Source: a virus
Direction: 5' to 3' (one strand)
Virus record (IMG/VR): IMGVR_UViG_3300031576_000002
Span: 1-64,000 of that record
Length of the DNA stretch: 64,000 bases
Part shown: in pieces, positions 37,909 to 61,578 of the stretch
Position numbering within the stretch: the first letter of the stretch is position 1
Layout: each line of letters starts with the position of its first letter
The notes under the pieces: generated by a model
Seen by the model: the letters and a program-made list of their open reading frames with translations, nothing else
What the model was told of the DNA's origin: nothing
Database searches by the model: none
Made by a program: the position numbers and the translations under genes

Positions 37909-39097
37909 TTCAGTAGGAGTTTAGCCGTGCTAAACCGCTACCCTTTCCTGAGTTGCAGCTTCCTCTCTACAAGCAAGATCCGCGTATGGTTGAAAGCCAG
38001 CAACCCTACCAAGATCACGAATGTTCTTGGCAGCGATGGTATCCGCAGGACCAGCATATCCGCAGCGGATACACTTGAACCAACCCCTTTCAGGACGGTT
38101 CTTCTTGTCAATACAGCCGCATTCAGTACAAGTTCTGGAAGTGTTCCTGGGATCGACCAAGACCACAGGAACTCCACATCTTCTTCCCTTGTACTGAATG
38201 AAGCTCCTCAACTGGTAGAAGCTCCAAGAGTGATGTTGACGCCGCTGAGCCTTTCTCACAGTTACTCTCTCCGTGATTCCAGTAAGGTCTTCCAAAGCAA
38301 CGGCACGGAGAGTGTCCTTGGCTTTCGTCACCACCTTCTTAGAGGTGCAGTGATTCACGTCTCTACCAAATCTGGACTCTTTACTTCTCCTCTTTCTGAG
38401 GAGCCTTTTTGCTGACTTGGTCCCTTTGGCTTGCAATTTTGCTCTTAGCTTGGAATGCCGATGTCTAAGCCCATTCACACGATCACCGGAGTAGGTGTCT
38501 CCGTCGGAATCGGCAAGGATATTCTTGACACCAAGATCGCAACCAAGAACATCTTGAGTCTGGATGAGAGGGGCCTCTGGAATGTCAAGAACTTGGTGGA
38601 TGTAGAAACGACCATCTCTGAATACCAAAGTTCCGTCTAGCTTACTGGAAAGATCGACTTGGAAAGGATTATGGAATCGGTAACGGCTTCCGTAGATGAG
38701 AATGGTTCCATCCCTCTTGCAGCTATGCCTGTGAACTGGAATCGCAGAATGTGGGCGGAACTTGACCTGTTTAAGGGCTCTCGGTCTGAAACTCTTGCCG
38801 TGCTTTTTCTTGAGCCTTTGGTTGGTAGACCTGAGCTTGGTTCTGGCTGTCTTGTAAGCAAAGGCAACTCTACGAGCTACTCTTTGTGCCTGGACTCCGG
38901 TAAGGTCGAAAAGTTCCTTGATCTCTCTATAGACCAAGTTGTTGAGAACAACCCACTGAAAAGTCTTTTCTTGGAGCGCAACCGCAGAGACATAGTTACA
39001 GGCTTGGTTGAAGACTTCCACCCTGGAGAGGAGTCCAGAAGTATCTGAAAGCGGGATCTGGAAGGTCAGGTGCATGGCACTAGATTAAACTACCTCA
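37909..39097 (-). mobile_element. TnpB-only element inserted into an imperfect hairpin
   Basis: The two halves of a hairpin surround this element: 18 identical bases at 37891-37908 and 17 at 39098-39114, also found together without interruption at 61537-61578 (7 bases between). The right end carries a 7-bp stem with a 3-base loop (GTTTAGC/GCTAAAC, 37919-37935), which overlaps the stop codon, as expected of IS200/IS605-type ends. No transposase gene is present. Confidence 0.75.
37930..39075 (-). CDS. tnpB: TnpB RNA-guided nuclease, second copy
   Basis: 381 aa. RuvC acids: D in G-C-D-L-G-V (about 178), E in A-L-E-D-L-T (about 262), D in P-A-D-T-I-A-A-K-N (about 346). Four-cysteine zinc ribbon C-T-E-C...C-I-R-C (about 314-337). 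Basic middle segment rich in R and K. Sequence is clearly distinct from the 2747-3919 TnpB. Complete by all markers. Confidence 0.92.
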   Translation of the reverse strand: MHLTFQIPLSDTSGLLSRVEVFNQACNYVSAVALQEKTFQWVVLNNLVYREIKELFDLTGVQAQRVARRVAFAYKTARTKLRSTNQRLKKKHGKSFRPRALKQVKFRPHSAIPVHRHSCKRDGTILIYGSRYRFHNPFQVDLSSKLDGTLVFRDGRFYIHQVLDIPEAPLIQTQDVLGCDLGVKNILADSDGDTYSGDRVNGLRHRHSKLRAKLQAKGTKSAKRLLRKRRSKESRFGRDVNHCTSKKVVTKAKDTLRAVALEDLTGITERVTVRKAQRRQHHSWSFYQLRSFIQYKGRRCGVPVVLVDPRNTSRTCTECGCIDKKNRPERGWFKCIRCGYAGPADTIAAKNIRDLGRVAGFQPYADLACREEAATQERVAV

Positions 39098-39137
39098 AAT
39101 TTTGAGGCAAGCCCTCATGTACTATACAACAGCAAAA

Positions 39138-39509
39138 TCAGGTTGCCGCGCCCTGGTTCAAGTGGAAGACGGCAGCACAGCGGAAAACGCTAGTAGAGCC
39201 ACTATCATTGGTGATCCGCGCGGCTACCCGGAACCCATTGGGGTGCAGCTTCGGCACGTTGGTATTCGCGGGAAAGACCCCCGGCACCTCGAACACTTTG
39301 ACATTCGGCGGGGGCGTCACCACTGTCGTCGAGATCACTTGATCGGCGTACAGGATCTCCACGGTAAAAGCAAGTCCTCCCATGGAGTGAATCGTGAAGG
39401 TAACGCCGTAGAACTCGGTGTCGCAAAGGACGGGTACTACATCGCTCTCAGCGGGTCCAAGCGTCAGCGTCTTGGGAATCGTGTTGGTCGTGGCACCGGC
39501 AAATGGCAT
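39138..39509 (-). CDS. Small beta-sandwich structural protein
   Basis: 123 aa, beta-rich throughout (V-T-F-T-I-H-S-M-G-G, V-E-I-L-Y, F-R-V-A-A-R-I-T-N-D-S-G-S-T), lacking catalytic motifs. Typical of phage head-decoration or tail proteins. It is followed in transcription by the TnpB element. No family assigned. Confidence 0.6.
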   Translation of the reverse strand: MPFAGATTNTIPKTLTLGPAESDVVPVLCDTEFYGVTFTIHSMGGLAFTVEILYADQVISTTVVTPPPNVKVFEVPGVFPANTNVPKLHPNGFRVAARITNDSGSTSVFRCAAVFHLNQGAAT

Positions 39510-39519
39510 AGCAACCTCC

Positions 39520-40338
39520 TCAACGGAAAAATTGCGAGTACACCGCGGCCAAGTGCTTGCAAAGCACTGAGCGGCCCTTCAGTTTGTAGCGAGTCCGTCT
39601 CCGCCTGCTGGGGTCCATAGGAGCATAGGTTCGCTGCGGCGCTGGTACTTGCTCCTTGTCGGCGGGCATGACCTTCATCTGCTGCGCTTTCCACCAAGCG
39701 CCCGAATACAAGAAATCAGGGCACCCGCAAAAAATTCTTACATCTGCCTGATGCAACTCCGGCGACGCCTTGGCGCGCACCTCGTCAAAGTCAATCGGAC
39801 GGGGGGTAGGCTTGGGTCTGCGCGGAGGTTTCGGTGGAGCCTTCTTGGGCGCAGGCTTGGGCGCTGTAGGCGCAGGAGCAGGCTTCGCAGGCGTCGGCTT
39901 GGACGGCGCTGGTTTTGGAGTCGGTGTCTTAGGCTTGAGCACTGGAGTAACAGGCTTGGACACACTCGGAACATCTGGAATCTTAGGAATCGTCTGCGAC
40001 ATCTTGAAGCGCTTGAGAAGATCTTCTTTCCGCTTAAGCTCATCGGGAGTCGTAGGCGCTGTAGGCTGCGCCTCTTCCATCTCAGACGGCTCCGGTCGCG
40101 GCCCTTGCAAGACAATCTTCTTCAGCGCGGGCCAGCTCACAATCTCGACAACTTGCTGCCAGGCGCCATGCTGGGAACCTGGACAAGTCGTATTCAGAAC
40201 TAGAACACCATCCTTGTCGTCAAAATCAATTAGATTGGCAAAGCACCCGCTCGATCTTCTTCGACGGCCTTCCGCTTGATCGTAGAGGCGGCGAAACGTC
40301 GCCGCTTCAATATGAAATTCAGAAGCTGTCAGTTCCAC
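39520..40338 (-). CDS. SWIM zinc-finger protein with Pro/Lys linker
   Basis: 272 aa. N-terminal 85 residues and C-terminal 80 residues form a split SWIM-type finger: I-F-C-G-C-P-D-F (about 203-210) and S-V-L-C-K-H-L-A-A-V (about 256-265), giving C-x-C...C-x-H. In between is a 100-residue linker of Pro, Lys, Ala and Thr repeats. SWIM fingers bind DNA or proteins. Reads like a head-associated protein; role unproven. Confidence 0.7.
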   Translation of the reverse strand: MELTASEFHIEAATFRRLYDQAEGRRRRSSGCFANLIDFDDKDGVLVLNTTCPGSQHGAWQQVVEIVSWPALKKIVLQGPRPEPSEMEEAQPTAPTTPDELKRKEDLLKRFKMSQTIPKIPDVPSVSKPVTPVLKPKTPTPKPAPSKPTPAKPAPAPTAPKPAPKKAPPKPPRRPKPTPRPIDFDEVRAKASPELHQADVRIFCGCPDFLYSGAWWKAQQMKVMPADKEQVPAPQRTYAPMDPSRRRRTRYKLKGRSVLCKHLAAVYSQFFR

Positions 40339-40341
40339 GGA

Positions 40342-41097
40342 TCACCAATTCGAAAGGAGAATCTGAATGCGTTCCTGAAACTGCTTGGCGCAAGCGTCAA
40401 ACCGCTGGTGGAAGTCCTTGCCGTGCTCTCTTACGAGTTCCACTGCGGCACTGCGTTCCTTCTCACCTGGAAGTTCCTGCTTGAGCGCCATGACCAGTTC
40501 TCGGATCGTCGTCGTGTAGAGCGCTGCCACCTCGCCCGTGTACGACTGAAAGATACCGTCAAGAAAAAGGTCCACCATCACCTTCGGATTCGCAATCTTG
40601 TGGATCGACTGCGCAAGATGATCGAGACGATCTACGGCAAGTAGGAAGGGCTCGACCTCGCCCTTCCGAAAGGGGGCGGGTTGCTTCTGCCGCTCGGCAA
40701 GATCTCGCGCGAGCCGCTCAAGGAGAGACCGAACCCCCTGCAAGCCTACATCCAGCTCTTGCGTCAATCCTGCGATCTTAGAATGGGTAAAGTAGCGTTC
40801 CGCGTTCTCGAACACTTCCTCGCTCGCGCTCGGCGTATGGTTGCGCTGAACACTCTGGAGCGCGTAGGCAACCCGTTGCTCTTCCGGTGCGTGACGGGAA
40901 AAGTGAATCGAAAAGTTACGGGGCGAGAATGGGCGAATGTCCAGGCCGCGAGTAGCGATAATTTCGTTGAGTGCGTTGCAGATGTCAAAGAGACTCGCTT
41001 CATCCTCAAAGCGCATACGTCCGGCAAGAGCTTTCAGCTCTTCCGGTAGATTACAGATTTTGCAGCGAGGCTCGTGCCGCAGACTTTGGTCAGACAC
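40342..41097 (-). CDS. Helical protein with CxxC N-terminus
   Basis: 251 aa. C-K-I-C (residues 12-15) with H in S-R-H (about 68) may bind zinc; the remainder is a helical bundle and coiled coil. The position several kilobases before the terminase gene and the N-terminal DNA-binding-like segment leave open a small-terminase role, but I see no direct motif. Confidence 0.55.
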   Translation of the reverse strand: MSDQSLRHEPRCKICNLPEELKALAGRMRFEDEASLFDICNALNEIIATRGLDIRPFSPRNFSIHFSRHAPEEQRVAYALQSVQRNHTPSASEEVFENAERYFTHSKIAGLTQELDVGLQGVRSLLERLARDLAERQKQPAPFRKGEVEPFLLAVDRLDHLAQSIHKIANPKVMVDLFLDGIFQSYTGEVAALYTTTIRELVMALKQELPGEKERSAAVELVREHGKDFHQRFDACAKQFQERIQILLSNW

Positions 41098-41117
41098 GGG
41101 GCGCTCCCCCGGCGCCC

Positions 41118-42329
41118 TCAGTAAAGGCGAGAACCGCCGTAAGCGGGCTCTCCGGGCAACATCAACGGAACCTTGCGCGTAGAGTCGTAAGGACCGCGGA
41201 CGTTGGTGTCCTGAAAGTTCATCATCGAGGGAATGCCATAGGGGCGGTAGTTGCGTGGCCTGGAAGCCAGCCGGTAGGAACCCGTGATCTTCGCTACCGT
41301 GTCACGATCGAGCGCGTGAACCTTTCCAGCCGACAGAAAGTACACAGGCTCCTGCACTTTCCCGTTCTCGACCGGCACGGGCACGATCCACTCCAGCACG
41401 GGACCAAGCTGAGTCGGAACTCGCACCTGCACACGGGCCTGAGCGCGCTTCACAGTTCCGTCCGCTGCGTGCTCGACCTTGGAGAAGCCGATGAACCGCA
41501 GCTTGGGCTGGTACACGAAATCAGCCCGTTGAAGTGCCGCATCAGCCGCCTGCATCACTCGTGAGCCAAGCTGGTGCATCGACACCTGGCTCTCGGTCAC
41601 GGAGTCGCGCTGCTGACTCTTCAAGCTGAAATTGAGCTTCTTGGTCGCCTCGACCAGCTTGGCCTTCTTGTTCTCCGGCTTGGCCTGGGCTGTCTTCATC
41701 AACTCGCCCGCAGGCTTCTCGCTGACTTCCCAGTGCGACCACGCCACCAAGAAGTTCTTGGAGTCAGGGAAATAGTCCACAATCTGCCCTGCCCTGCCCG
41801 TCTGACGATCGATCACCTTGTCCATCAGGTTGAAAGCCGCCGCGCCAAACTTGCGAAGCTTCCCGAGCAGTGCCTTCCGAACAGCCAGCGTCTGCTCGCC
41901 TGCCAGAATCTTACGCAGCTCGCCGCGTTCCGCAAGCTGGCGCAGGTGGTCAAACGTAGCAGCCGCCTTGTGAAGACCCTGCATCTTGGCGCGCGCCTGG
42001 AATTGCTCCAGGTCCCGCAGCGTGATCTGGCCTACCGGGTCGAGTTCCTGGCGGTTCCTGGCGGCCACCAGGAACCCGCGCAGCTCGGGCTGAGTCGGCA
42101 CCGCGTACTCCAGCAGCGCCCGGAGCATGGCTGTGCTCAGAACCTCGGGACTGGTAGATGCCTTCTTGGCTCGTCGCGCGTTCCTGGGGTCCAAAACCCT
42201 GCGATAGGGATTGGTTTTGGCCGATGCCTGCGCCTGCTGCCGCGCACGGAACTCGGGCGCAAACTGCTCGAAGTAGCCTCCCAGCGGGGAGGACTCGCGA
42301 AAAGACCGGCTCAGCACAGGCGTGTTCAC
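41118..42329 (-). CDS. Unknown protein, possibly structural
   Basis: 403 aa. An arginine-rich N-terminus (about residues 25-60), a helical middle and a beta-rich C-terminal 130 residues (V-R-V-P-T-Q-L-G-P-V-L-E-W-I-V-P-V). No signal peptide or enzyme motif. Expressed in the same operon as 42340-43182. Capsid or internal head protein is a guess. Confidence 0.5.
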   Translation of the reverse strand: MNTPVLSRSFRESSPLGGYFEQFAPEFRARQQAQASAKTNPYRRVLDPRNARRAKKASTSPEVLSTAMLRALLEYAVPTQPELRGFLVAARNRQELDPVGQITLRDLEQFQARAKMQGLHKAAATFDHLRQLAERGELRKILAGEQTLAVRKALLGKLRKFGAAAFNLMDKVIDRQTGRAGQIVDYFPDSKNFLVAWSHWEVSEKPAGELMKTAQAKPENKKAKLVEATKKLNFSLKSQQRDSVTESQVSMHQLGSRVMQAADAALQRADFVYQPKLRFIGFSKVEHAADGTVKRAQARVQVRVPTQLGPVLEWIVPVPVENGKVQEPVYFLSAGKVHALDRDTVAKITGSYRLASRPRNYRPYGIPSMMNFQDTNVRGPYDSTRKVPLMLPGEPAYGGSRLY

Positions 42330-42339
42330 GGGATCCCCC

Positions 42340-43182
42340 TTACTCCGCGCGCTTTCGGCCCTGCTCTTCCTTCACCAGAGCTTCCGCATAAGCGCGATCA
42401 CCGAACGCCTGCGTGTAGTAGTCCACGAGGTAGCTCTCTTCCTTCTCCTGAGAGTAGCCGCGCGGCTCCTCCGACTGATCGGGTGGGAACCCGGGATCCT
42501 TGCCGGGATGAACCGGAATCACCTGCGCGGTACGGAACACGAAACGGTGTCCGTCCAGGTCCACGATCGGGTTGCCGCGCCGGTCATAGCTCACCAGATG
42601 ACCGGTCCCCTCGGGAGTCCGTACCTTGGCGCCCACTTTCAGCCTGGCGGCCTCCTTGGGGCGGCTGTCCACGACCTCGACAGAGATCGGCTCGACACTC
42701 TCGGTCTCCTTGCGAACCAGCGCGTAGGCCCCGCTATCGTCCTTTTCCAGAGCCCAGATGCGATGGTCGTCGCCACCGGACTTGCGGAAGAGGCCCGTAC
42801 CGATGCGGACAAAACCAGGCGGAACGCTCGTCGAACTGCGCAGCGGAATCCGCTCTTCCTTGGTCTGGATCCCGACGCGAAGGCAGTTGTTCGCCGTACG
42901 TTCGATGTTGGCCCACACGATCTCCTTGGAGGGAAGCTCGTGTGCCAGGAACGCCGTCAAGTGGGCCGCAGGCGGAACGTCCAGCTCCGGCACAAACTTG
43001 ATGTCCACGTACTCCCCGCCGTCGTAGCGGTAGGGGGCGCTTCCGATCTTGAGATCGGTACGGTGGCCGCGCTTACGCATTCCAGCGGCCAAGCCGGCAA
43101 AGAAATTGTCGGCACCCACCGAGTAGCGATTCGCGGGATTCCCGAACTCCCGACTCAGATTGCGCGCTCGCATCGAAAACAT
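42340..43182 (-). CDS. Unknown protein with SH3-like domain
   Basis: 280 aa. G-A-D-N-F-F-A-G-L-A-A-G near residue 23 and V-G-A-K-V-R-T-P-E-G-T-G-H-L-V-S-Y (about 200-217) followed by G-N-P-I-V-D-L, the form of a small beta barrel. Acidic C-terminus. Ends 10 bases before the next start. Not recognised. Confidence 0.5.
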   Translation of the reverse strand: MFSMRARNLSREFGNPANRYSVGADNFFAGLAAGMRKRGHRTDLKIGSAPYRYDGGEYVDIKFVPELDVPPAAHLTAFLAHELPSKEIVWANIERTANNCLRVGIQTKEERIPLRSSTSVPPGFVRIGTGLFRKSGGDDHRIWALEKDDSGAYALVRKETESVEPISVEVVDSRPKEAARLKVGAKVRTPEGTGHLVSYDRRGNPIVDLDGHRFVFRTAQVIPVHPGKDPGFPPDQSEEPRGYSQEKEESYLVDYYTQAFGDRAYAEALVKEEQGRKRAE

Positions 43183-43184
43183 GT

Positions 43185-43289
43185 TTACCCCTCCCCCATG
43201 CGCTTCCGCAGAACCCCTCGAAGACCCTTAATCCAGATTAACATCTCAAGGTCGAGTGTCAGTGTTGCTACCACGTCCAGGCTCTTCAT
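43185..43289 (-). CDS. Tiny hydrophobic/basic protein
   Basis: 34 aa from ATG 43289, which overlaps the upstream stop as ATGA, the best evidence for translation. Hydrophobic first 20 residues, then basic (L-R-K-R). Could be a membrane-associated peptide. Confidence 0.4.
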   Translation of the reverse strand: MKSLDVVATLTLDLEMLIWIKGLRGVLRKRMGEG

Positions 43290-43747
43290 GAGGCCGTTGA
43301 CGACTGTGCGAACGTAGGACTGCTGCCAGACGCTTGCTTCGCACGCAAAGCCCTCTTGCGGCCCGTCGTACTCAGGTAGCGTTTCTTTCTTTGCCCCGCT
43401 GAGTGCTCCTGCATGAACGTCGAAAGATCCGTCTTGAAGTATCGCTTTATCATCGTATACAGGTACGGAATCGAAACTCCCAGCGCTGCGCACTGCGCTT
43501 GCAGTGTCCCGAACTGTTGAGAGGTCTCGACCAGAATGTCTTTGATGTCGCGTCGAACCCGTCCGCTGAATTTCCATTCGATCCACACTACTTTCGGCGG
43601 CTTCCAACGGTAGCACTCAAAACTGCACCAGAGCATGCCCTTCTTGACCCGACTGGGAAACAGATGCTTCGTGACAGGTCCCCCGCATGCAATGCAGGTA
43701 TATCTCCCTTTCGGGGTTGAAGCTCTCGTTGGCGCAGCTTGGTCCAC
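43286..43747 (-). CDS. Zinc-finger helix-turn-helix-like protein, GTG start
   Basis: 153 aa. C-I-A-C (about 18) and C-S-F-E-C (about 41) form a zinc finger. Residues 75-110 have a helix-turn-helix appearance (L-G-V-S-I-P-Y-L-Y-T-M-I-K-R-Y). Basic C-terminus. Homing-endonuclease-like or regulatory protein possible. The GTG at 43747 is the first usable start after a TAG. The 70 bases between 43748 and 43817 contain no gene. Confidence 0.55.
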   Translation of the reverse strand: MDQAAPTRASTPKGRYTCIACGGPVTKHLFPSRVKKGMLWCSFECYRWKPPKVVWIEWKFSGRVRRDIKDILVETSQQFGTLQAQCAALGVSIPYLYTMIKRYFKTDLSTFMQEHSAGQRKKRYLSTTGRKRALRAKQASGSSPTFAQSSTAS

Positions 43748-43817
43748 AGCCTCAAGGGTACGTGCCTAGTCCAACGCTACCTAAAGTGCTATTGCAACCG
43801 CAACGCCCACAGTCCCG

Positions 43818-44117
43818 TCAAAGCGGCGTTTTTCTGGCTGCACGACCTTCCACCCCAAAGTTGTCGGGATTCCTTAGAACATGGGTGCGGTACTTCGCCA
43901 TCGCATTCATCAGGTCGCGTTCTATCGTCGCCAGCGGGTACCCCAGCAGAGAAGCGATCTCGGCAGGGCTATGGTCGCGGTCGGGATCATTCCAGTCACA
44001 GTGCGTCGGAAGCTTTCGGTTGAAATGGTCACATCTTGAAAAAGTGCAGTCTCGGTCGCCTACTCCGACCCTCCAGCGCCAGCATGGAAACCGTCGCGTC
44101 AGGTCTTCCTTGCTCAC
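43818..44117 (-). CDS. Sigma-region-4-like HTH protein with zinc motif
   Basis: 99 aa from GTG 44117, overlapping the KH gene's stop as GTGA. A cysteine/histidine cluster in residues 12-45 (C-W-R-W...C-T-F-S-R-C-D-H) precedes H-S-P-A-E-I-A-S-L-L-G-Y-P-L-A-T-I-E-R-D-L, a helix-turn-helix like sigma region 4.2. Likely a transcription regulator, perhaps for late genes, though no regions 2 or 3 are present. Confidence 0.65.
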   Translation of the reverse strand: MSKEDLTRRFPCWRWRVGVGDRDCTFSRCDHFNRKLPTHCDWNDPDRDHSPAEIASLLGYPLATIERDLMNAMAKYRTHVLRNPDNFGVEGRAARKTPL

Positions 44118-44410
44118 CGAGAGAAGCCAGGCTCGACAGGAGCCCCGGGTAAGTCTATGAAAAACCGCGTCCAACAGCCTGCACGCGCAGCAGCCTTACT
44201 CCACAGAACGCGAATCGCTGCCAAAGTAGATCCGCCTTGTCCGATCACACGGCCGTAGTCCTTTTGATCCACCATGATCTCCAGGACCAGCGTGTGACCG
44301 CCTGCAATCTTGACCACGCTCACTTTTTCTGGAGCCTCGACAATGAGGCGAATACACGCCTCCAAGGTGAGGCGTAGCGATTCAGCAGGGTCGAAAGTAA
44401 CGGAATCCAT
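44114..44410 (-). CDS. KH-domain RNA-binding protein (KhpA-like)
   Basis: 98 aa from ATG 44410, one base overlap with the SbcC stop. The GRVIGQGG loop (53-60) followed by T-L-A-A-I-R is the type II KH GXXG RNA-binding motif, like bacterial KhpA. A C-terminal extension is basic and proline-rich. Probably binds phage or host RNA. Rare in phages. Confidence 0.85.
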   Translation of the reverse strand: MDSVTFDPAESLRLTLEACIRLIVEAPEKVSVVKIAGGHTLVLEIMVDQKDYGRVIGQGGSTLAAIRVLWSKAAARAGCWTRFFIDLPGAPVEPGFSR

Positions 44411-48093: not shown

Positions 48094-48095
48094 AG

Positions 48096-48329
48096 CTACG
48101 CGACTCCAATTCTCAACAGCTCGCGAAATACGGGAGACACAAACTCCTCCCCCATCGTCTCGGGTTCAAGCCAAGACTCTCCTTTACGGCACGCAGCGAT
48201 TCTGTTCAAGACCGCGCGAATCTCTTTCGCCTGGGTAGGCTCTCCTAGCAATTCCAACTGCTTCGCCAAGTCCTCTATGTACTCGGCTGCCTGATCCCAA
48301 GTCTGAAGCTGAAAGTCCCGACCTGCCAT
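48096..48329 (-). CDS. Small helical protein
   Basis: 77 aa, ATG, ends 2 bases before sbcD. Helical, with L-L-G-E-P-T-Q-A near the middle. Follows the SSB gene and a strong hairpin at 48341. Unrecognised. Confidence 0.5.
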   Translation of the reverse strand: MAGRDFQLQTWDQAAEYIEDLAKQLELLGEPTQAKEIRAVLNRIAACRKGESWLEPETMGEEFVSPVFRELLRIGVA

Positions 48330-49666: not shown

Positions 49667-49854
49667 GGATCTCGCTTCCCAGACGCACGTATGTCTTCGT
49701 CGATCAGATTTTCGATCTGCCTGTGCAGGTCCGCGCTGACTTGTTCAAGGTCTTCACCATCAGCGACAGTCGTTGTGATACTGGTGGAGAATTCGACGGA
49801 CTGGTAGTCAGCCGACACTCTCTTGACTACGCCCTTGCTCAGCTTCAACGGCAT
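49618..49854 (-). CDS. Small beta/alpha protein
   Basis: 78 aa. Two predicted strands (V-K-R-V-S-A-D-Y-Q-S-V-E-F-S) followed by helices; it overlaps recA by 47 bases and the downstream helical protein by 49. Resembles short phage recombination accessory proteins, but is unassigned. Confidence 0.5.
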   Translation of the reverse strand: MPLKLSKGVVKRVSADYQSVEFSTSITTTVADGEDLEQVSADLHRQIENLIDEDIRASGKRDPWIQRIVTKAFQVKSA

Positions 49855-51688
49855 GGGGTTTCTCGCGCAGGGCTCGCCGGACCTCTTTCAAAAACTCGGG
49901 ATCTTCGCTGAGCGCCTGCTTTAGCTTTTCGCGACCGATGTAGCTTCTCCCCAGCAGCGTGAGTTTTCTACGGTCGCCTTCTACTATACCGCGTGAGATT
50001 GCGGCGCGAAGAACGCCGGAAACCACGTCGATTCCAGTTTTGTAATTGAGGATGACCTCGGCCTCTCCGCCTGGAGGGGCAAACTTGTTTTTCACTACTT
50101 TGATCTTGACCGTGTGCGCGTCTGGAATTTTATCTCCGCCGGCACGACTTACCCGCACGCTGAGCGCCTTCCAGTGTTTCAGCGCTCTCCCGCCGGGCTG
50201 ATCTTCGGGACTGCCCCACATGACATTCACTTTGCTACGGAGCTGGTTGATGAATACCAACACGGTACTCGTCTTGTTAAGACGGGGAGCGATCTTCGCA
50301 AGTCCGTGCTGGACAAGGCGTGCTTGCAGGCCGGGAATCTCTTTGTCCTCGACATCTCCCGCAACGACCCGGGCAGGCGTCACGACTGCGATCGAGTCCA
50401 CCACGATCACGGCGTAGCGATCCTGGTCGATCAGCGCGTAGAGCAGATCGAAGAAGCGTTCGCCACTGGGAACGCCGTCTGAATTCTCGGGAAGGCCCTT
50501 GACCCGCACCAACCGCTTGCGCTGAATTCCAAGCGTCCGCATCCAAGTAGGAGGAGTTGCCTGCTCCAGATCGCAGTAGACACACGGTTTCTTCAAGTCC
50601 TTTTGAATAGAGCCAATCATGTGAAGCATGAGCGCCGACTTCCCTGAATTGTGAACAACGAAACCATTTGCTACATAATTGTTGAACGGGCTTGCCACCC
50701 TCAAGTCGTATGTTCGGCATTTGCCCGCTTTACGAATGACAGAAATGTGATCCTCTACTGCCACAAAACGTAGATTGTTGTGCCGTTCAAGTGCATGCTC
50801 CCTTCCATGCGCGCTGGGCGACATTACAACAAGATTTTCTAATGCGTCATTTTTACAGTCTTCGTCTAGGTGGTGTACGTGCTCTGCTTGAGATAAGAAC
50901 TTTAACCCTTCAAGCCGCCCGTCGTTAAGAAGCCGAACATACTCCTTAAACGATAGTCCGTTCAAAGCAGCTTCCACGACAGCCCTGGAACGCCTTAGCC
51001 TGCGGTAGGTGTAGCATTTGCCCGCTGTGCCAGGCACTCTCTTAGTAGGGGCGTTGGGATGGAACTTCACAAAAATGTCAATTCGACTAATAGCTGGAGT
51101 ACGCTCGCGCACACGGTACGGAGTACGATTGTGGATATAAACTGAGTCACCTACTACCAAATCGGCCAAAGCTGTATAGCACTCACCTGTCCAGAATTTG
51201 TGCTCAGGTGTAGCTTTTAGACGGTACCCCTTAAACGTCTCAACTTCTAGGCATTGCCGCACACCCGTCGAGATTACATCCACAACTCTATTTTGAAAAA
51301 TACGCCCCTCTTCGTTCACGCAAGAAGTAAAAAAGTATGAATCGACTATAGCAGAGCGCTTATACATCCCTAGTCCTGACATCGGAATCCCGTGAAAACG
51401 GTTGTACAGCCGCTCAACCGTCCCCCCTTTGCAGCTTTGACGCCGCCCTTCTGGGGTTCGCGTGCCATAGCGTATAAAAGTGCTAGCCTCCACGCAGGAT
51501 TCCGGACCCCAGGCTTCCACAATCTTGCCTTGGGGAAGGCCCCCAATTCCAGTAGCTACATCAAAATCCTCGATGCCAGTCGAGTAGACGCGGGTGTACT
51601 GATCGTCTGCCTCAAATCCTCGTCCGATGCAGGGACCGAATTTGGCCACCAGTCCGTCTAACTCGTTCTTTTTCTTTTCTTCTTTCAT
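49808..51688 (-). CDS. recA: RecA recombinase with in-frame HNH intein
   Basis: 626 aa, 343 after splicing, the normal RecA size. The intein (residues 65-347) divides the Walker A motif, G-P-E-S before it and S-G-K-S after it. C-extein shows Walker B V-I-V-V-D-S-I-A (about 430), L-R-S-K (L2 region) and the typical C-terminus. Strand exchange in phage recombination and repair. Unspliced protein cannot bind ATP. Confidence 0.95.
   Translation of the reverse strand: MKEEKKKNELDGLVAKFGPCIGRGFEADDQYTRVYSTGIEDFDVATGIGGLPQGKIVEAWGPESCVEASTFIRYGTRTPEGRRQSCKGGTVERLYNRFHGIPMSGLGMYKRSAIVDSYFFTSCVNEEGRIFQNRVVDVISTGVRQCLEVETFKGYRLKATPEHKFWTGECYTALADLVVGDSVYIHNRTPYRVRERTPAISRIDIFVKFHPNAPTKRVPGTAGKCYTYRRLRRSRAVVEAALNGLSFKEYVRLLNDGRLEGLKFLSQAEHVHHLDEDCKNDALENLVVMSPSAHGREHALERHNNLRFVAVEDHISVIRKAGKCRTYDLRVASPFNNYVANGFVVHNSGKSALMLHMIGSIQKDLKKPCVYCDLEQATPPTWMRTLGIQRKRLVRVKGLPENSDGVPSGERFFDLLYALIDQDRYAVIVVDSIAVVTPARVVAGDVEDKEIPGLQARLVQHGLAKIAPRLNKTSTVLVFINQLRSKVNVMWGSPEDQPGGRALKHWKALSVRVSRAGGDKIPDAHTVKIKVVKNKFAPPGGEAEVILNYKTGIDVVSGVLRAAISRGIVEGDRRKLTLLGRSYIGREKLKQALSEDPEFLKEVRRALREKPHAVEAEQGRSQESVG
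50648..51496 (-). other. Intein with HNH endonuclease inside RecA
   Basis: 283 aa. Begins with C-V-E-A-S-T-F-I and ends V-V-H-N before Ser. Block B has T-P-E-H. The endonuclease is HNH type (H-V-H-H-L-D-E-D-C-K-N, N-L-V-V-M-S) in contrast to the LAGLIDADG portal intein. Clearly AT-richer than the exteins. All splice residues conserved. Confidence 0.93.
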
Positions 51689-54953: not shown

Positions 54954-54986
54954 GTCCGATCCTCCAATAGCCAGGGTTATCTGACC

Positions 54987-55041
54987 TAGTTGTGGTACCA
55001 CAACTAGCTAGCATTATACTACCTATCTAACGGTTTTCTCA
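54987..55041 (-). promoter_or_regulatory. Promoter with TAGTTGTGGTACCACAACTA operator
   Basis: Minus strand: -35-like TGAGAA (55036-55041), 17 bases, TATAAT (55013-55018). Directly downstream is a perfect 20-bp palindrome (54987-55006) across the expected start of transcription, which fits a repressor site. A related dyad occurs at 61622. Confidence 0.75.
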
Positions 55042-55045
55042 TTGC

Positions 55046-55059
55046 AGTCTTATAAGACT
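55046..55059. promoter_or_regulatory. Isolated AGTCT-type operator
   Basis: Perfect 14-bp palindrome AGTCTTATAAGACT. The same AGTCT-N4-AGACT arms overlap four TTGACA promoters, but here no -35 sits at the right distance on either strand. It lies between the polymerase-operon promoter and the iteron array. Confidence 0.65.
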
Positions 55060-55399
55060 TCCGATATTTTCTTTGTACCTACCACTTTTCTTACACATCT
55101 CTGTAAGATCAAAAGCATTTAAGCTTATGGACACTGGTCAAGTGTCCCTCTTGGAGATCCTATTACGTGCCGTACAAGAAGGCAAGAGTAAGGCGGACTC
55201 GAAAAGAAGCTCGCAAAAAGAATCACCATCAACCAGGTCGAGTAAAGGGGGATCATTAAAGGGCCGAGCATATCTTAGCTCTAGCCGGAGATACTATGAC
55301 CTACTTGTTACGTAGTGGCGCGACGTTTAGATGGACGACTTTACGTGCCCCACTTGTTGACTCGACTTTTATTGTACCACGGAAGATCGACCACACACT

Positions 55400-55570
55400 T
55401 AAAGCTGCGTTGAAAAAAGGGCCAGAATCGGCAAGTTTTTGCATTAACAGACGTTTTTCAACTTAAACTCCCGTTGGAAAAACAGCCTGTTTCTGCGTAG
55501 GTCCACGTAAAACTGCCGTTGGATTCGTGAACTGTCGTTGCAGATTTGATAAACTGGCGTTGGAATTCTA
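55400..55570. repeat. Phased iteron array, putative replication origin or partition site
   Basis: At least five copies of a motif T-A-A-A-C-T-G-x-C-G-T-T-G-G-A (clear copies at about 55401, 55464, 55508, 55528 and 55550) and three degenerate ones occupy 21-22 base steps, two helical turns. No accepted gene overlaps. The region from about 55060 to 55400 is also non-coding and shows nothing else I can identify except a plus-strand frame that I rejected. It lies between the sigma-like factor operon and the polymerase operon. Confidence 0.65.
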
Positions 55571-55620
55571 TCAAGCCTTGTTGGACGAGCAAGCGCTCGC
55601 AAAGGCTCGACGAGATGCCC

Positions 55621-55657
55621 AAAAAAGAAGGGAGCCGCCTTTCAGTGGCTCCCTAAA
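55621..55657 (-). terminator. Rho-independent terminator after sigma-like gene
   Basis: Minus strand: GGGAGCC, 10-base loop, GGCTCCC, then TTCTTTTTT. It is 22 bases after the stop at 55679 and separates that operon from the iteron region. Confidence 0.85.
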
Positions 55658-55678
55658 ACTACTAATACAGATTGATAT

Positions 55679-56290
55679 TTACTGGCTGACCGAAGCGCGC
55701 ATCTTTGCGAATACCCGCTCCTCGAACCTCTGGCACGTCTCACTGTGGATTCCCAGGCGGCGGGCGATACGAAGGGTCGTACCATCCTCCTCGACCCACG
55801 CCTCCACAAAACTACGCTCGGTCGGTGTGAGCACTGCCAGCGCGTGCTGGACAAGCTCCCGCCGTTCTGCGCCTGCGAAGGCGGTAGCGGGCGTGCTCAG
55901 GTGCAGCGAGTGATGCTCGGGAGCAGGTCCAAAGTCGTGCGGGATTTCCCGCCCTGCGCCCCTTTTGAAAGACTTGTACCGGTTGCTCAGAATGTTCTTG
56001 GTCTTGAGCTTGAGCGCGGTGGCAGGCTCGAAGCCGTACGGTTGCGCGCCCTTCTTCTGGAACATCGCCCAGAGGCCCAGCAGGCACTCCTGGGAGAGAT
56101 CCTCCCAGTCTTCAGGACGACCGCTGCCGTGAGAGGACTTCCACGAAGCGGTCTTGGTGTACTTCTCGAAGCTCTTGAAGAGAGCTTCTGCCGCTACCTT
56201 CTTGACTCGTATACGACCCTTCTTCTTGATCGACGGAACGAACGCCTGCGCTGCGAGTGCCGAGATCCTCTCGGCGTGAGCTGCTGCCAT
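55679..56290 (-). CDS. Sigma70-family-like factor
   Basis: 203 aa, AAAGGGG ribosome binding site. Region 2-like helix D-W-E-D-L-S-Q-E-C-L-L-G-L-W (about 60-74) and region 4-like L-T-P-T-E-R-S-F-V-E-A-W...T-L-R-I-A-R-R-L-G-I-H-S-E-T-C (about 153-185) with helix-turn-helix. Basic N-terminus. Likely redirects host RNA polymerase to a class of phage promoters. Two operator-bearing promoters precede it. Confidence 0.8.
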   Translation of the reverse strand: MAAAHAERISALAAQAFVPSIKKKGRIRVKKVAAEALFKSFEKYTKTASWKSSHGSGRPEDWEDLSQECLLGLWAMFQKKGAQPYGFEPATALKLKTKNILSNRYKSFKRGAGREIPHDFGPAPEHHSLHLSTPATAFAGAERRELVQHALAVLTPTERSFVEAWVEEDGTTLRIARRLGIHSETCQRFEERVFAKMRASVSQ

Positions 56291-56318
56291 GCGATTCCCC
56301 TTTCAGCGGAAGGCCCGC

Positions 56319-56347
56319 ATAGTAGTCTTATCAGACTTGCTTGTCAA
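56319..56347 (-). promoter_or_regulatory. Proximal promoter of sigma-like gene
   Basis: TTGACA (56342-56347), 17 bases, TACTAT (56319-56324). The dyad AGTCTTATCAGACT (56324-56337) fills the spacer, in contrast to the other sites where it covers the -10 box. Confidence 0.8.
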
Positions 56348-56382
56348 GCCCCTGGCTCGACGAGCTGTTCGCCTTGGGGTAC

Positions 56383-56411
56383 AGTCTAATGAGACTGTAG
56401 TAGTCTGTCAA
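56383..56411 (-). promoter_or_regulatory. Distal promoter of sigma-like gene
   Basis: TTGACA (56406-56411), 17 bases, TAGACT (56383-56388), with AGTCTAATGAGACT over the -10 box as at 9999. Tandem with the promoter at 56319. Confidence 0.8.
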
Positions 56412-56427
56412 GTACTGAGCGCTGCGC

Positions 56428-56895
56428 CTACAGCCGCTCCAGCTCGCGCAGAAGCGCCTTCCGCCCCTGCTCCAGCAGCGCTACCGTCCGGTACGACGGA
56501 GCTGGAAGGCTAAGCCAGCGCTGGTCTAGACGGTCCCAGAGACGGTCTCTTTCCTGCACGGATAACGTCGATTTCCCGACCAGGAGGCTCAGGCGCTTCC
56601 AGAGGGCATCACAGTCCTTCCGGAGCGCCTGAGCCCGTAAGTAGGCCGCAGAACGCTCTATATCGAGGTCGGATACGGTATCCTCACCACCTTCAAGAAT
56701 GTCGATCAGGCGGGCTCTAGGACCGCCCCGCTGGCAGGAGAAGCAGTGCCACAGGCCCTCATCAGGCCGGAAGCTGAAGCTGGGATGCTCGTCCTTGTGG
56801 AAGGGGCAGCGGCCAAGCAGGTGGCCGTCCGACAGGTGGGAGACAACCTCGATCCCCAGCCGGGCCAGGAAGGCTTCTGCGCGCTCAGGATCCAT
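56428..56895 (-). CDS. DnaG-type primase zinc-binding domain protein
   Basis: 155 aa. C-P-F-H-K-D-E-H-P-S-F (about 31-41) and W-H-C-F-S-C-Q-R-G-G (about 52-61) match the CHC2 zinc finger of bacterial primases. No TOPRIM catalytic core follows; the remaining residues are helical. The start is inside the helicase gene by 11 bases. It may recognise priming sites for a separate catalytic protein or for host primase. Confidence 0.85.
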   Translation of the reverse strand: MDPERAEAFLARLGIEVVSHLSDGHLLGRCPFHKDEHPSFSFRPDEGLWHCFSCQRGGPRARLIDILEGGEDTVSDLDIERSAAYLRAQALRKDCDALWKRLSLLVGKSTLSVQERDRLWDRLDQRWLSLPAPSYRTVALLEQGRKALLRELERL

Positions 56896-58267
56896 GCTGC
56901 GACTTCTTCCCCTTCATTTTTATCTTCCAGTCGCCGACGTAGCTCCAAGCTGGAGCAAAGCAGACGTAGCTGAACACGAACCTGCGACCGAAGCGATCCT
57001 TCTCGATAATCATTTTGAGCTTGCTATGCAGCGCGTCTTCCTTGGACTGGCGAAGGTGGACGATGGTCTCGCAGTGGGGGGCGATGTAATGGCTGAGCCC
57101 GATCGAGTCTACGGTCTCGGCCGTATCCCCCTTCTTCTTATTTGCCTCTCTTGATTCCTGGACAGCGGTAATGGCAGGGATAGCGGTTCGTCGCGTGAAG
57201 TTGTGAAGCTCCTGAAAGAGTAGATCGTACTTCTCACTGCGGCCGTCCCTGAACTTTCGCACCGGCATCATGATCCCGGCGTAGTCGATCACGACCACGT
57301 CTGGAAACGCCCCCGTTCTCGTGCGGAAGATTTCGACTTCGCGGTAGAGGTCGGTTACCGTCGCCTGATCTGGTAGATCGACCATGTAGAAGGGCGGCTT
57401 GATCTTCTTCTGAGCTTTGAGTAACGCCTTGTACTTGTCCCTTTCCGCGTCGGAGAGCTTTGCATTCCGAATCAGGGCGGAATCGAGCATGCCTGCGCGG
57501 GCATCGTAGCAGTGCTTGAGTTCCGTGTGCGACATCTCCAGGCTCAGGTAGAGGACGGACTTGCCTTGCTGCGCGACATTGTACGCAATCGAGATCATCG
57601 TCCGGCTCTTTCCACCGGACGTACCTGAGTAGAGGCAGGTGAGGGATCCCGGAGCGATCCCGCCCGTGGACTGATCGAGAAACTCGATCCCGAACGGGAT
57701 GGCCCGAACTACGGCCTCGCCACGTGCTTTGGCGTTGTACTCGCGCCAGCGTTCGGACACATCGTCAGAGACAAACCCACGCCACTGAACATTGTCCTGC
57801 GCGCCACCTTCTTGCAGGAGGCGGGCTAGGATGTCGGAACGGAGCTTCTTGTAGTCTCTTCCGCTGCCAAGACCTTCCTGGATGGAGCGCCCAACGGTAA
57901 GAAGCTGCCGTCCTTCCCAGAGATCCGCCAAGCGATTGCGGTAGAAGTCGATATTGGCGGTGTCATGTTCGACTTTGGAGATCCGGCTATAGGCTGTGAG
58001 GAGCTTCGCTTTCTTATCCGCGTCGCGGGCGTGCTGATCGAGAAAGGTGTAGAATACTTCGGGCGCGGGATAGCCTTGATGCGCTTTCCGAAAAGCTCGA
58101 AAAGCTGCCAGCAAATCTTTGTGGCTAGTCCTTGTGAAAAGCTCGGGAGGTATGGATTCTACTTGCGGACCAGTCTCACGACTTATCAGGCAGGCAAGGA
58201 GGGCCGCTTCGGCCTCGACGTCGGCCAGGATGAGGAGAGGCTCCTCTTTTTTGACCTTCAGCGCCAT
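56885..58267 (-). CDS. dnaB: Replicative DNA helicase (DnaB/RecA-fold)
   Basis: 460 aa. N-terminal helical domain (A-A-L-L-A-C-L-I-S, residues 20-28) as in DnaB; C-terminal RecA-like motor with Walker A G-T-S-G-G-K-S-R (about 211-218, an unusual S-G-G in place of G-x-G-K), Walker B V-V-V-I-D-Y-A-G (about 325) and S-R-E-A-N-K (about 400). Unwinds the fork ahead of the polymerase. Adjacent to its likely loader and to the primase finger. Confidence 0.92.
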   Translation of the reverse strand: MALKVKKEEPLLILADVEAEAALLACLISRETGPQVESIPPELFTRTSHKDLLAAFRAFRKAHQGYPAPEVFYTFLDQHARDADKKAKLLTAYSRISKVEHDTANIDFYRNRLADLWEGRQLLTVGRSIQEGLGSGRDYKKLRSDILARLLQEGGAQDNVQWRGFVSDDVSERWREYNAKARGEAVVRAIPFGIEFLDQSTGGIAPGSLTCLYSGTSGGKSRTMISIAYNVAQQGKSVLYLSLEMSHTELKHCYDARAGMLDSALIRNAKLSDAERDKYKALLKAQKKIKPPFYMVDLPDQATVTDLYREVEIFRTRTGAFPDVVVIDYAGIMMPVRKFRDGRSEKYDLLFQELHNFTRRTAIPAITAVQESREANKKKGDTAETVDSIGLSHYIAPHCETIVHLRQSKEDALHSKLKMIIEKDRFGRRFVFSYVCFAPAWSYVGDWKIKMKGKKSQHGS

Positions 58268-59007
58268 CGCTCGTGCTCGCGGAAACTCTCGCCTTCCAAG
58301 GTGACGGGTACGAGGCTCCGGAGCCGATCGACGATATGGTCAGGGAATAGATCGCTGAGTGTCTGCACTCCTCTCGACTTTTCAGCGGGGGGGACTTCAA
58401 TGGGGCAGTTCGCGGTCGCGATCAAGGCACAGTCGTTGTCGTAGACCTCAGACATCAACTCCTGAATCGCCTCGTTCCGCATCTTGCCGGGAACGCTCTC
58501 GTCCATGAGCACCGCAACCTTGTCGATCTCTTCCAGAGCTAGCAGCCGGGAGCGCAGGATCCGCTCAACCCGATTGCGCTTCGCCATGTCGCGGAGCGAT
58601 TCGATCCGCAGGTTCACTAGGGCGGAGAGACGGATCACGTAGGCGCTGTAGTTCCGCTCGCAGGCTTCTCGAATCAGGAGCGCCGTGATGGCACTTTTGG
58701 CGACTCCTGGAGGCCCTTGGATGTAGAGGCCGCCTCCGGTGCGGATTCTCTGATCGAGCGTATCAACGAAGTCCTCGACCTTTGCAAGCTGCTTCTGATT
58801 GACGGCGCGGAACTCCCCGTGGAGGCTCTTCCAACCAAAGCCGCGGTAGCGCCGTTTGACATTGGCGCGGTCTAGTCGGTACTCCAGCACCGCCTTGGCC
58901 GCGCAGCTACACGACCTGAACTCTCCCGACTCTGGATCCAGAGTCACACCCATGCCGGAGCAGACCCGGCAGGGAATAGGAGATCTAGCGGGCTTACCCG
59001 TTTGCAC
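58258..59007 (-). CDS. DnaC-like helicase loader
   Basis: 249 aa, GTG start. N-terminal four-cysteine zinc site (C-R-V-C and C-S-C, about residues 14-34), Walker A G-P-P-G-V-A-K-S (about 98-105), Walker B-like L-L-A-L-E-E-I-D (about 152) and sensor T-A-N-C-P (about 210). AAA+ protein of the DnaC/DnaI/IstB family, expected to load the helicase. Overlaps the helicase start by 10 bases. Confidence 0.9.
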   Translation of the reverse strand: MQTGKPARSPIPCRVCSGMGVTLDPESGEFRSCSCAAKAVLEYRLDRANVKRRYRGFGWKSLHGEFRAVNQKQLAKVEDFVDTLDQRIRTGGGLYIQGPPGVAKSAITALLIREACERNYSAYVIRLSALVNLRIESLRDMAKRNRVERILRSRLLALEEIDKVAVLMDESVPGKMRNEAIQELMSEVYDNDCALIATANCPIEVPPAEKSRGVQTLSDLFPDHIVDRLRSLVPVTLEGESFREHERWR

Positions 59008-59030
59008 TGCGACTCTCGACTAGGGCGCGC

Positions 59031-59597
59031 TTAGTGGATCGGATGCGCAGCTTCATCCCTACGACGTACAATACCCCAGTCGATCGCAGCTTTTCGGGTG
59101 GGCGCCATCGACTTCGAGGGCATCCGGGTCGTGAGCTGGAACATCTTCTCACTTGTGATGTGCCCAAGCATGGGAACGAATCGAGCGCTGTAAAAACGCT
59201 CGAAGCAGGCGTCCACGAACTCCTTGTACTCAATGGGAGACCAGCGGTGCTGGTCTTGAAAGCATGCGATCCGCGCCGTAAGCGCCGGAACCTCTCGCCT
59301 GGAGACGGAAAGTGGACGGTTGTAGCAGCGGTAATACCGTTGGGTGAAATAGTGTAAAATGTCTTTCGACGTCCAAGCTGCGTATTCCTTTTCCGTCAGT
59401 TTTTTCGGTTCTTTCGCGCTCTTGAGGTTTTGGTTCTCTTCGAGTGCGGCTGCGTACCTATCCCGCAGGATTTGCAGTTTCTTGCACAGCTTTGCGTTCT
59501 TCCGCTGTAGCTCCCGGTAGGACTGTAAGACGTCGAGTTCGACGGGATCTCTTCGTGGGTCTGAGACGTTCTGCCGGCCCGATTTGCCCGCTGCCAT
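59031..59597 (-). CDS. Coiled-coil replication-module protein
   Basis: 188 aa, ribosome binding site GGAGGA. Residues 20-60 form a coiled coil (L-Q-R-K-N-A-K-L-C-K-K-L); the following domain (residues 70-170) is helical with aromatic positions such as Y-Y-R-C-Y. Its 5' end overlaps the helicase gene's 3' end by 140 bases in another frame. Could be an initiator or loader partner; not identified. A 20-codon frame at 58994-59056 between it and the loader is too short to judge. Confidence 0.55.
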   Translation of the reverse strand: MAAGKSGRQNVSDPRRDPVELDVLQSYRELQRKNAKLCKKLQILRDRYAAALEENQNLKSAKEPKKLTEKEYAAWTSKDILHYFTQRYYRCYNRPLSVSRREVPALTARIACFQDQHRWSPIEYKEFVDACFERFYSARFVPMLGHITSEKMFQLTTRMPSKSMAPTRKAAIDWGIVRRRDEAAHPIH

Positions 59598-61029
59598 AGA
59601 TCCTCCGACGGAATACGCGGAACGGAGGTTGCTCGCTGCGTAAAAACTTGACCGTCCGTTCTGCGTGATTTTTTAGGTGGACTACATCTGGCTGAAAAAA
59701 GACGGCGGTTGCCCGCTTCTTTCCCTCCGACACGGTCATCGACCGCAAACGCTGGAAGGCTTTGATCGCGGACTTCTTGACATCTGCTACGACAATCGCG
59801 TCGAGGGTGGGGAGATCCACGGCTTCGTCGATCAGCGTGGAGATGAGACAGACCCCGTCTTGCTCTTCGATGTGCCGCAAGCCGGCACGACGTTCGCCTG
59901 GAGAACTCTTGCCCGACACGAATAGGCTGCGCGGGATGGCGCGTTCGAGCTGCTGACCGTGTGGAACGTGTCCGACGATAACAGCGACTGTCTTCCCGCG
60001 GCGGCGTAGGTATTCTACGATGTGTGCAACAGTTCTGTGGTAGCGGTCGTTGTCCACCAGCGCGGTCTTGTAGACCTGCTGGTAGCCGCCCCGAGTATCA
60101 AGGTCTTCGGCAGGAAGCTGGAACACGGTCACGTCCAGAGGGAGTATGATACCCCGCTCGACCGCCTCCTCGTAGCTCATGTGGTAGAGGATCGGCCCCG
60201 TGACTGCTTCAATGCCGATGTCGGAAGCGTCTTCTCTCCACGGCGTTGCCGTGAGTCCGACCACATAAGCAGCTTTGTGGAACTCCTGCGCAAGTAGCTG
60301 AGCAATGTCGCTGCTGGTATGGTGCGCTTCGTCCCAAACTACAACTTTGGAGTCCCGGCAGATTCTTTGTACGGGCGCGTGCCTTAGAAGGGGCAGAATT
60401 CTTTCCTTCTTCATTCCTTTGGGGCAGTCCTTCCTCTTGACCTTCAGCCCGAATGCGGAGGCAAGAGACTGGAATGTAACAACTAGAATATCACCATCTA
60501 GGTCTGCCTTGCCGTCCGCGATGACGCCTACCTTGGCCCCTGGCAGCAATTTTCGGAATTTATTCGCAGCTTGGTGTGCAACCTCCGCCTGCCAGACAAT
60601 GTATAGAAATGGGCTCAGCGAAGTTCTACGAAACAGCTCTACTGCGAGAATAGTTTTTCCGCTCCTTGGAGGAGCCGATACAATTCCTCGCCGGTATCGC
60701 TGAACCTGCTCCAGAACATCGGGCTGAAAAGAGCGCAGGGGAAAGGCAGGACAGAACTCTTCTTCGGGGTACTCCGGCCGCAGGTCTTCGACGATCCGGT
60801 AGGGCTCCTCGATAGAGTCGAGGTACTGACATGCGCGCGGCAAGAGCCCGGTAAGGAACCTACCACCTTTGTGCAAAAAGCTCTTTCTGCCGTCCCATCC
60901 GTGGGCGTAGGCCCTCGTAAAAACGTAGCCCGGAATGGAGTAGCTCAGCGCGAACCGAAGCTCTTCGGTGAGCTTTTCACTGAGCCCGGCGACACGGGTA
61001 GTAGCGGAATCAACGTAGATCTGAAGCAT
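59458..61029 (-). CDS. UvsW-like superfamily 2 helicase
   Basis: 523 aa. Walker A A-P-P-R-S-G-K-T (about 118-125), D-E-A-H box (about 234-237), S-A/T-A-T-P-W (about 260) and motif VI-like Q-R-L-R-S (about 415). Similar in layout to T4 UvsW, which remodels forks and recombination intermediates. The last 45 residues (R/P-rich) overlap the next gene and may be under little constraint. Confidence 0.85.
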   Translation of the reverse strand: MLQIYVDSATTRVAGLSEKLTEELRFALSYSIPGYVFTRAYAHGWDGRKSFLHKGGRFLTGLLPRACQYLDSIEEPYRIVEDLRPEYPEEEFCPAFPLRSFQPDVLEQVQRYRRGIVSAPPRSGKTILAVELFRRTSLSPFLYIVWQAEVAHQAANKFRKLLPGAKVGVIADGKADLDGDILVVTFQSLASAFGLKVKRKDCPKGMKKERILPLLRHAPVQRICRDSKVVVWDEAHHTSSDIAQLLAQEFHKAAYVVGLTATPWREDASDIGIEAVTGPILYHMSYEEAVERGIILPLDVTVFQLPAEDLDTRGGYQQVYKTALVDNDRYHRTVAHIVEYLRRRGKTVAVIVGHVPHGQQLERAIPRSLFVSGKSSPGERRAGLRHIEEQDGVCLISTLIDEAVDLPTLDAIVVADVKKSAIKAFQRLRSMTVSEGKKRATAVFFQPDVVHLKNHAERTVKFLRSEQPPFRVFRRRIYGSGQIGPAERLRPTKRSRRTRRLTVLPGATAEERKAVQETANPAG

Positions 61030-61034
61030 GGGGG

Positions 61035-61535
61035 CTAGCCAGCAAAATTCAGGCGTATCTGTTCGGGCTTGACAGCGGCTAGAAAATCATCTAGCCGCAC
61101 AACTGCGACACGGGGCTTGCGGAGAATGAGGGTTGTTCCGCTGCGTCCTGATTTCCAGCCCAGAAGAATAAGATCGCTACGGCGCAGCATGACGAAGCTA
61201 CAGGTGAAGTTTCCCTTGAAGATGAGGAGCCCCAGAGAAGCCGGCGTCTTCTCCCGCTGCAACTGCTCCCAGAAGCGGAACAGCTTCGGCCCTCGGGTAT
61301 CGGATTCCAGAAGCAGCTTCCACGACCACGCCTTCGTGTTCTTACATTCCACGGTGATTGGGAAGGGGGCCGCTTCCGGTTTCACAACTCCTATGTCGCC
61401 GTGGCCGGTGTTGGAGAAGCGGGCGTGGCTGCCAGAGCCGCTAGTACGCCAGAGCGCATGGCGGTCTCCACACCACCATCCGCCTAGAAGGCGTGCGATT
61501 TCGCGCTCATACTGAGAGCCCTTGGCACTCGACAT
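61035..61535 (-). CDS. PD-(D/E)XK nuclease (Holliday-junction resolvase-like)
   Basis: 166 aa from ATG 61535; the longer frame would need a TTG inside a hairpin. E (residue 10), G-H-G-D-I-G (D47) and V-E-C-K-N (E63, K65) form the nuclease site. The tail is beta-rich. Phage resolvases of this group cut four-way junctions before packaging. The hairpin at 61540-61578 precedes the start, and GAGG is inside it, so folding could mask the ribosome binding site. Confidence 0.8.
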   Translation of the reverse strand: MSSAKGSQYEREIARLLGGWWCGDRHALWRTSGSGSHARFSNTGHGDIGVVKPEAAPFPITVECKNTKAWSWKLLLESDTRGPKLFRFWEQLQREKTPASLGLLIFKGNFTCSFVMLRRSDLILLGWKSGRSGTTLILRKPRVAVVRLDDFLAAVKPEQIRLNFAG

Positions 61536-61539
61536 GACT

Positions 61540-61578
61540 GGCTTTGCCTCAGAGAGTCTCGAATTTTGAGGCAAGCCC
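61540..61578. repeat. Hairpin identical to the TnpB target, unoccupied
   Basis: Inverted repeat with arms GGCTTTGCCTCA and TGAGGCAAGCC around a 16-base loop. The halves are identical to the two sides of the TnpB element at 37909-39097. The TnpB side of the pair has lost only the 7 central bases. Confidence 0.8.

What the first reader, a model, noticed from the sequence alone, without database searches (positions are those of the whole stretch)
37909..61578. Occupied and unoccupied copies of the same TnpB target in one window
The hairpin at 61540-61578 has its two halves, 18 and 17 identical bases, at each end of the TnpB element at 37909-39097. It is rare to see an empty site preserved in the same genome. 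It gives nearly exact element ends and suggests the 7 central bases or their hairpin are recognised. The hairpin itself appears to be a phage regulatory element duplicated before insertion.
Basis: seen in the sequence. Interest (0 to 1): 0.6.

Follow-up and report, generated by a model that had tools for sequence, protein, structure and literature searches.

The report
Phage tnpB gene split a hairpin
In a giant phage genome, a small mobile element carrying the RNA-guided DNA cutter TnpB sits inside a hairpin sequence whose uninterrupted twin survives 22 kb away, which shows where the element's ends lie and suggests why its own nuclease would spare the twin.

Summary
The 18-nt and 17-nt arms flanking tnpB (37930-39075, minus strand) recur, 7 nt apart, only at 61537-61578 in the whole 205-kb phage record. 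Best reading: a tnpB-only IS200/IS605-like (IS1341-type) element of about 1184 bp inserted in the loop of a leader hairpin. Both hairpin copies lie just downstream of GTATAGT, an over-represented promoter-like box. The junction agrees with a hairpin across the tnpB stop codon, the usual right-end arrangement in relatives. Aligned relatives show other ends (TTCAC/GTCAC left, TTGAC right), and no target duplication surrounds the arms. Recognition of the 7 central bases or of the hairpin is not supported: flanks and intact loop differ by one substitution and a 2-4 nt indel, and four sampled sibling insertions show no palindrome (by eye). The intact copy matches the 16-nt guide in two of three plausible registers, but TTTGAG is not in register, so it is predicted to escape cutting (inferred). 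The rival, that the arms are element ends and 61.5 kb is a relic, is weaker but open. In passing: three other tnpB elements here, each 1226 bp, have ~22-bp inverted repeats and 10-bp direct repeats, unlike IS605.

The parts
37891..37908 (+). left arm of the interrupted hairpin (downstream flank on the tnpB strand; the inferred guide sequence of the ωRNA lies here)
   Evidence: exact copy of 61537-61554
37909..39093 (-). inferred tnpB-only element, about 1184 bp (right end uncertain within 37908-37910)
   Evidence: junction by comparison with the intact hairpin
37913..37941 (-). right-end hairpin GTAGCGGTTTAGC-ACG-GCTAAACTCCTAC spanning the tnpB stop codon; likely 3' end of the ωRNA scaffold
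   Evidence: folding; comparable position of the right-end hairpin in relatives
37930..39075 (-). tnpB, 381 aa, catalytic D180, E262, D345 and four zinc-finger cysteines kept
39094..39099 (-). candidate TAM TTTGAG directly 5' of the element (TTCGAG in the intact copy)
   Evidence: sequence comparison; inferred
39098..39114 (+). right arm of the interrupted hairpin
   Evidence: exact copy of 61562-61578
39121..39127 (-). GTATAGT promoter-like box, 6 nt before the hairpin
61537..61578 (-). uninterrupted hairpin copy
61580..61586 (-). GTATAGT promoter-like box, 1 nt before the intact hairpin
61035..61535 (-). PDDEXK_15 / RusA-like gene whose ATG follows the intact hairpin
37071..37847 (-). 258-aa gene of unknown family downstream of the interrupted hairpin

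Best explanation
A tnpB-only element of the IS200/IS605 (IS1341-type) kind inserted, without target duplication, into the loop of a promoter-proximal leader hairpin that this phage carries in two places. Shown: the shared arms and their uniqueness, the uninterrupted copy, an open TnpB frame with its catalytic residues, and a right-end hairpin that agrees with the junction. Inferred: insertion 3' of TTTGAG; mobilisation by a TnpA from elsewhere, since none was found in the record; an ωRNA whose guide is the downstream hairpin arm; and, in the normal cycle, cutting of element-free alleles so that repair copies the element in. The paralogous hairpin at 61.5 kb carries the guide sequence but no TTTGAG in register, because its loop has a 2-4 nt indel and a T-to-C change, so it is predicted to escape cutting.
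For: Exact arms at only two places in 205 kb. Joined flanks equal the intact hairpin apart from one substitution and a short indel, and fold to the same hairpin. Identity stops at the outer ends of the stem on both sides, as expected if the hairpin is the conserved unit. Both copies sit 1 or 6 nt after GTATAGT, seen 18 times on the minus strand against about 3 expected and often just before an ATG. The right-end hairpin across the stop codon ends 3-5 nt before the junction, and most aligned relatives have a hairpin at or near the stop codon just before their right end. Sibling pairs have ends unlike the arms. No direct repeats flank the arms (3/10 and 2/10 in register).
Against: The left end has no subterminal hairpin, unlike its relatives. 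No element-free allele of the 37.9-kb locus was found. The family's left motif is TTCAC/GTCAC or similar, not TTTGAG. Three other tnpB elements in this phage have inverted repeats at their ends, so arms as element ends cannot be dismissed. The 61.5-kb box has a weak -35 region (inspection).
Confidence: 0.66

Rival explanations
1. The arms are terminal inverted repeats of the tnpB element itself, and the hairpin at 61.5 kb is a terminal-only relic or miniature derivative of it (compare the core-deleted IS605-type elements of Haloquadratum), not an empty target.
For: Three other tnpB elements in the same phage have ~22-bp inverted repeats. The two ends of our element also share a weak similarity inside the arms (GTAGTTTAATC against GGAGTTTAGCC; by eye). 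Terminal-only IS605-type elements of about 52 bp are known (PMC3119063).
Against: Direct repeats are absent around both arm-bounded sites (3/10 and 2/10) while the other elements score 8-9/10. Relatives lack such ends. The right end would lie about 20 nt beyond the right-end hairpin, against 8-9 nt in relatives. Both hairpins follow a GTATAGT box at different spacing, which random or motif-directed insertion would not give.
Confidence: 0.2
2. The 61.5-kb hairpin is an excision scar: the element once sat there too and was precisely lost.
For: Its loop equals the two occupied-site flanks joined, nearly base for base.
Against: Precise IS605-type excision leaves a site identical to a never-occupied one, so sequence alone cannot separate the two; nothing requires a past insertion there.
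Confidence: 0.06
3. Element and hairpins are unrelated: the shared hairpin is a chance or convergent palindrome and tnpB merely lies between two short repeats.
For: The arms are short, and other palindromes occur in the genome.
Against: 17- and 18-nt exact matches in register on both sides of one gene.
Confidence: 0.01

Closest known systems
ISDra2 and its TnpB (IS200/IS605; Karvelis et al. 2021, PMC8612924)
   Same: TnpB with the same domains; insertion directly 3' of a short motif without target duplication; guide taken from the flank beyond the right end; an empty site is a potential target
   Different: No tnpA here, no left-end hairpin, candidate TAM TTTGAG in place of TTGAT; activity untested
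IS1341-type tnpB-only elements and PATEs (Haloquadratum, PMC3119063)
   Same: tnpB without tnpA; near-terminal palindromes; terminal-only forms known
   Different: Here the palindrome appears to belong to the target and is split by the element, one arm on each side
Insertion sequences that target REP palindromes (ISPpu9, ISPsy8, ISPa11 and others; PMC1525189)
   Same: Insertion into an extragenic palindrome that has other copies in the genome
   Different: Other IS elements; here only two hairpin copies and one insertion, so no preference can be shown

Membership tests
IS200/IS605 (IS1341-type, tnpB only) | TnpB with OrfB_IS605 and TNB domains and RuvC residues | tested here: met
IS200/IS605 (IS1341-type, tnpB only) | no terminal inverted repeats, no target duplication | tested here: inconclusive
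   no direct repeats around the arms; whether the arms are target or element ends is the main open point
IS200/IS605 (IS1341-type, tnpB only) | subterminal hairpin at the right end | tested here: met
   hairpin 37913-37941 across the stop codon
IS200/IS605 (IS1341-type, tnpB only) | subterminal hairpin at the left end | tested here: not met
   only 18 nt between the inferred end and the start codon; the palindrome there includes flank
IS200/IS605 (IS1341-type, tnpB only) | short conserved motif directly 5' of the element | tested here: inconclusive
   TTTGAG by inference from one insertion; relatives show TTCAC or GTCAC
IS605 proper (tnpA + tnpB) | Y1 transposase TnpA | tested here: not met
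   no PF01797 match in the record
IS607 | serine recombinase TnpA | tested here: not met
   no PF00239 match in the record
Active RNA-guided nuclease (TnpB with ωRNA) | guide-directed DNA cutting | not testable with these tools
   needs an assay
REP-targeting insertion sequence | repeated insertion into copies of the same palindrome | tested here: not met
   one insertion, one intact copy in the record; four sibling insertions without a visible palindrome

The most novel reading that the evidence does not exclude
The 61.5-kb hairpin is a natural self-target of the phage's own TnpB that carries a full 16-nt guide match and persists because its loop changes remove the in-register TAM: a natural record of selection against self-cutting in a duplicated regulatory hairpin.
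Probability: 0.2. Interest if true: 0.55.

Novelty: new member of a known kind. Interest (0 to 1): 0.36.

Why it matters
An interrupted and an intact copy of one target in a single genome give element ends, guide and target register without any related genome, so the pair can be tested directly as natural TnpB sites, one predicted to be cut and one not. It bears on how tnpB-only elements persist in phages that carry no transposase for them.

Tried and rejected
Searched IMG/VR with the terminase, the DNA polymerase, the 258-aa neighbour and the glycosyltransferase for phages with an empty 37.9-kb site: none found. Hairpin patterns in IMG/VR: none. Hairpin against phage records by blastn: one chance 18-nt match. 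Element DNA against plasmids: only remote tnpB coding matches. Rfam over the element: none. I first took the TATAAT repeats at 54,986 and 61,620 for promoters; they are two of five copies of a longer palindrome, so they are not used as promoter evidence. Rho-independent terminator: rejected, no T run follows the hairpin on either strand. Target duplication around the arms: not met. A right end at GGTTTAG, as MAFFT would place it: rejected because the strong hairpin extends across that point. Two 50-kb stretches of a Paenibacillus plasmid were fetched to compare ends of the side-finding elements and were not analysed further.

Full report
What is there. The window is the first 64 kb of a 205,227-bp virus record, a jumbo tailed phage by its terminase, polymerase, helicase, UvsX and SbcCD genes; its nearest terminase in the phage collection is 31% identical (Virus Rctr197k). 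The described repeats are exact: 18 nt at 37891-37908 and 61537-61554, 17 nt at 39098-39114 and 61562-61578. Over the whole record no other place carries both halves. At 61.5 kb the halves are 7 nt apart and form one hairpin; at 37.9 kb they are separated by tnpB on the minus strand.

The gene. The 381-aa product matches Cas12f1-like_TNB and OrfB_IS605 and keeps the RuvC residues D180, E262 and D345 and four zinc-finger cysteines. Aligned relatives are at most 48% identical. No Y1 or serine transposase was found in the record. The record holds five tnpB genes.

Where the element ends. On the tnpB strand the occupied site reads GGGCTTGCCTCAAAATTTGAG-[GTAGTTTAATCTAGTGCC-ATG ... CTCCTACTGA]-ACTCTGAGGCAAAGCCAGT and the intact site GGGCTTGCCTCAAAATTCGAG-ACTCTCTGAGGCAAAGCCAGT. 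The flanks account for the intact copy apart from one substitution and a 2-4 nt indel, depending on the right end chosen. Relatives give a partly independent check. Two pairs of related elements at different sites (L018/L026, L022/L028) define ends of TTCAC or GTCAC on the left and TTGAC on the right, and in most relatives a hairpin at or near the stop codon precedes the right end by 8-9 nt. Our element has a strong hairpin across the stop codon that ends 3-5 nt before the junction. Its left end is unusual: no hairpin of its own.

What the hairpin is. GTATAGT occurs 18 times on the minus strand against about 3 expected (maximum 9 in simulations), often a few nt before an ATG, so it looks like a -10 box of this phage. 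Both hairpin copies follow such a box, at 1 and 6 nt; the intact copy ends next to the ATG of a PDDEXK gene. I infer a 5'-leader hairpin carried in two operons. Beyond box and hairpin the flanks are not clearly similar.

Is the hairpin recognised? Nothing shows it. Only one insertion is known, and in the four sampled insertions of relatives the shared feature is a short 5' motif. I saw no palindrome across those junctions by eye; the joined flanks were not folded.

Is the intact copy a self-target? In ISDra2 the guide is the ~16 nt beyond the right end, and cutting needs the TAM directly 5' of the target (PMC8612924). For the three plausible right ends the intact copy matches the 16-nt guide with 1, 0 and 0 mismatches, but the bases directly 5' are not TTTGAG; read directly after its TTCGAG the match falls to 7, 1 and 5 of 16. 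Escape from cutting is thus predicted, provided TTTGAG is the TAM, which is itself inferred from this one insertion.

Main rival. The arms could be terminal inverted repeats and 61.5 kb a terminal-only relic. It gains weight because three other tnpB elements here do have inverted and direct repeats. It loses weight because neither arm-bounded site has direct repeats (3/10 and 2/10 against 8-9/10), relatives lack such ends, and the right end would lie too far beyond the right-end hairpin.

Verdict. Observation confirmed. The occupied/unoccupied reading is probable but rests on a paralogous site and one insertion; recognition of the loop is unsupported. It is a new member of a known kind that offers a useful natural test of guide and TAM register.

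Noticed in passing
tnpB at window 2747-3919 (-); C1:146702-147874 (-); C1:160088-161260 (+): Three paralogous tnpB-only elements, each exactly 1226 bp, with imperfect ~22-bp terminal inverted repeats (CATGYGTGA...CTTAAGCC) and imperfect 10-bp flanking direct repeats in exact register (9/10, 9/10, 8/10; 0-0.1% of 3000 random controls). Inverted repeats plus target duplication are not IS200/IS605-like; TIR- and TSD-bearing relatives are described for eukaryotic Fanzors (PMC10711439)..
   Followed up: partly
54986 and 61620 in the window; C1:126306, 156855, 201306: Five copies of a palindrome of about 60 bp (GATAGG...CTACCTAGTTGTG-CACAACTAGGTAG...CCTATC) dispersed in the record.
   Followed up: partly
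49808-51688 (-): UvsX-like ORF with an HNH-endonuclease-like segment at aa 249-310, perhaps an intein or homing insert.
   Followed up: no
minus strand, e.g. 5065, 39127, 49989, 61586 and C1:121195-197117: GTATAGT/GTATAAT boxes strongly biased to the minus strand, several preceded about 24 nt upstream by GTGnG(G/T)AA and followed within 10 nt by ATG: likely a phage promoter with short leaders.
   Followed up: partly
C1:157181-158386 (+): A fifth tnpB with canonical-looking ends (5' TTCAT, right end TTGAT), about 300 bp from one of the long palindromes.
   Followed up: no
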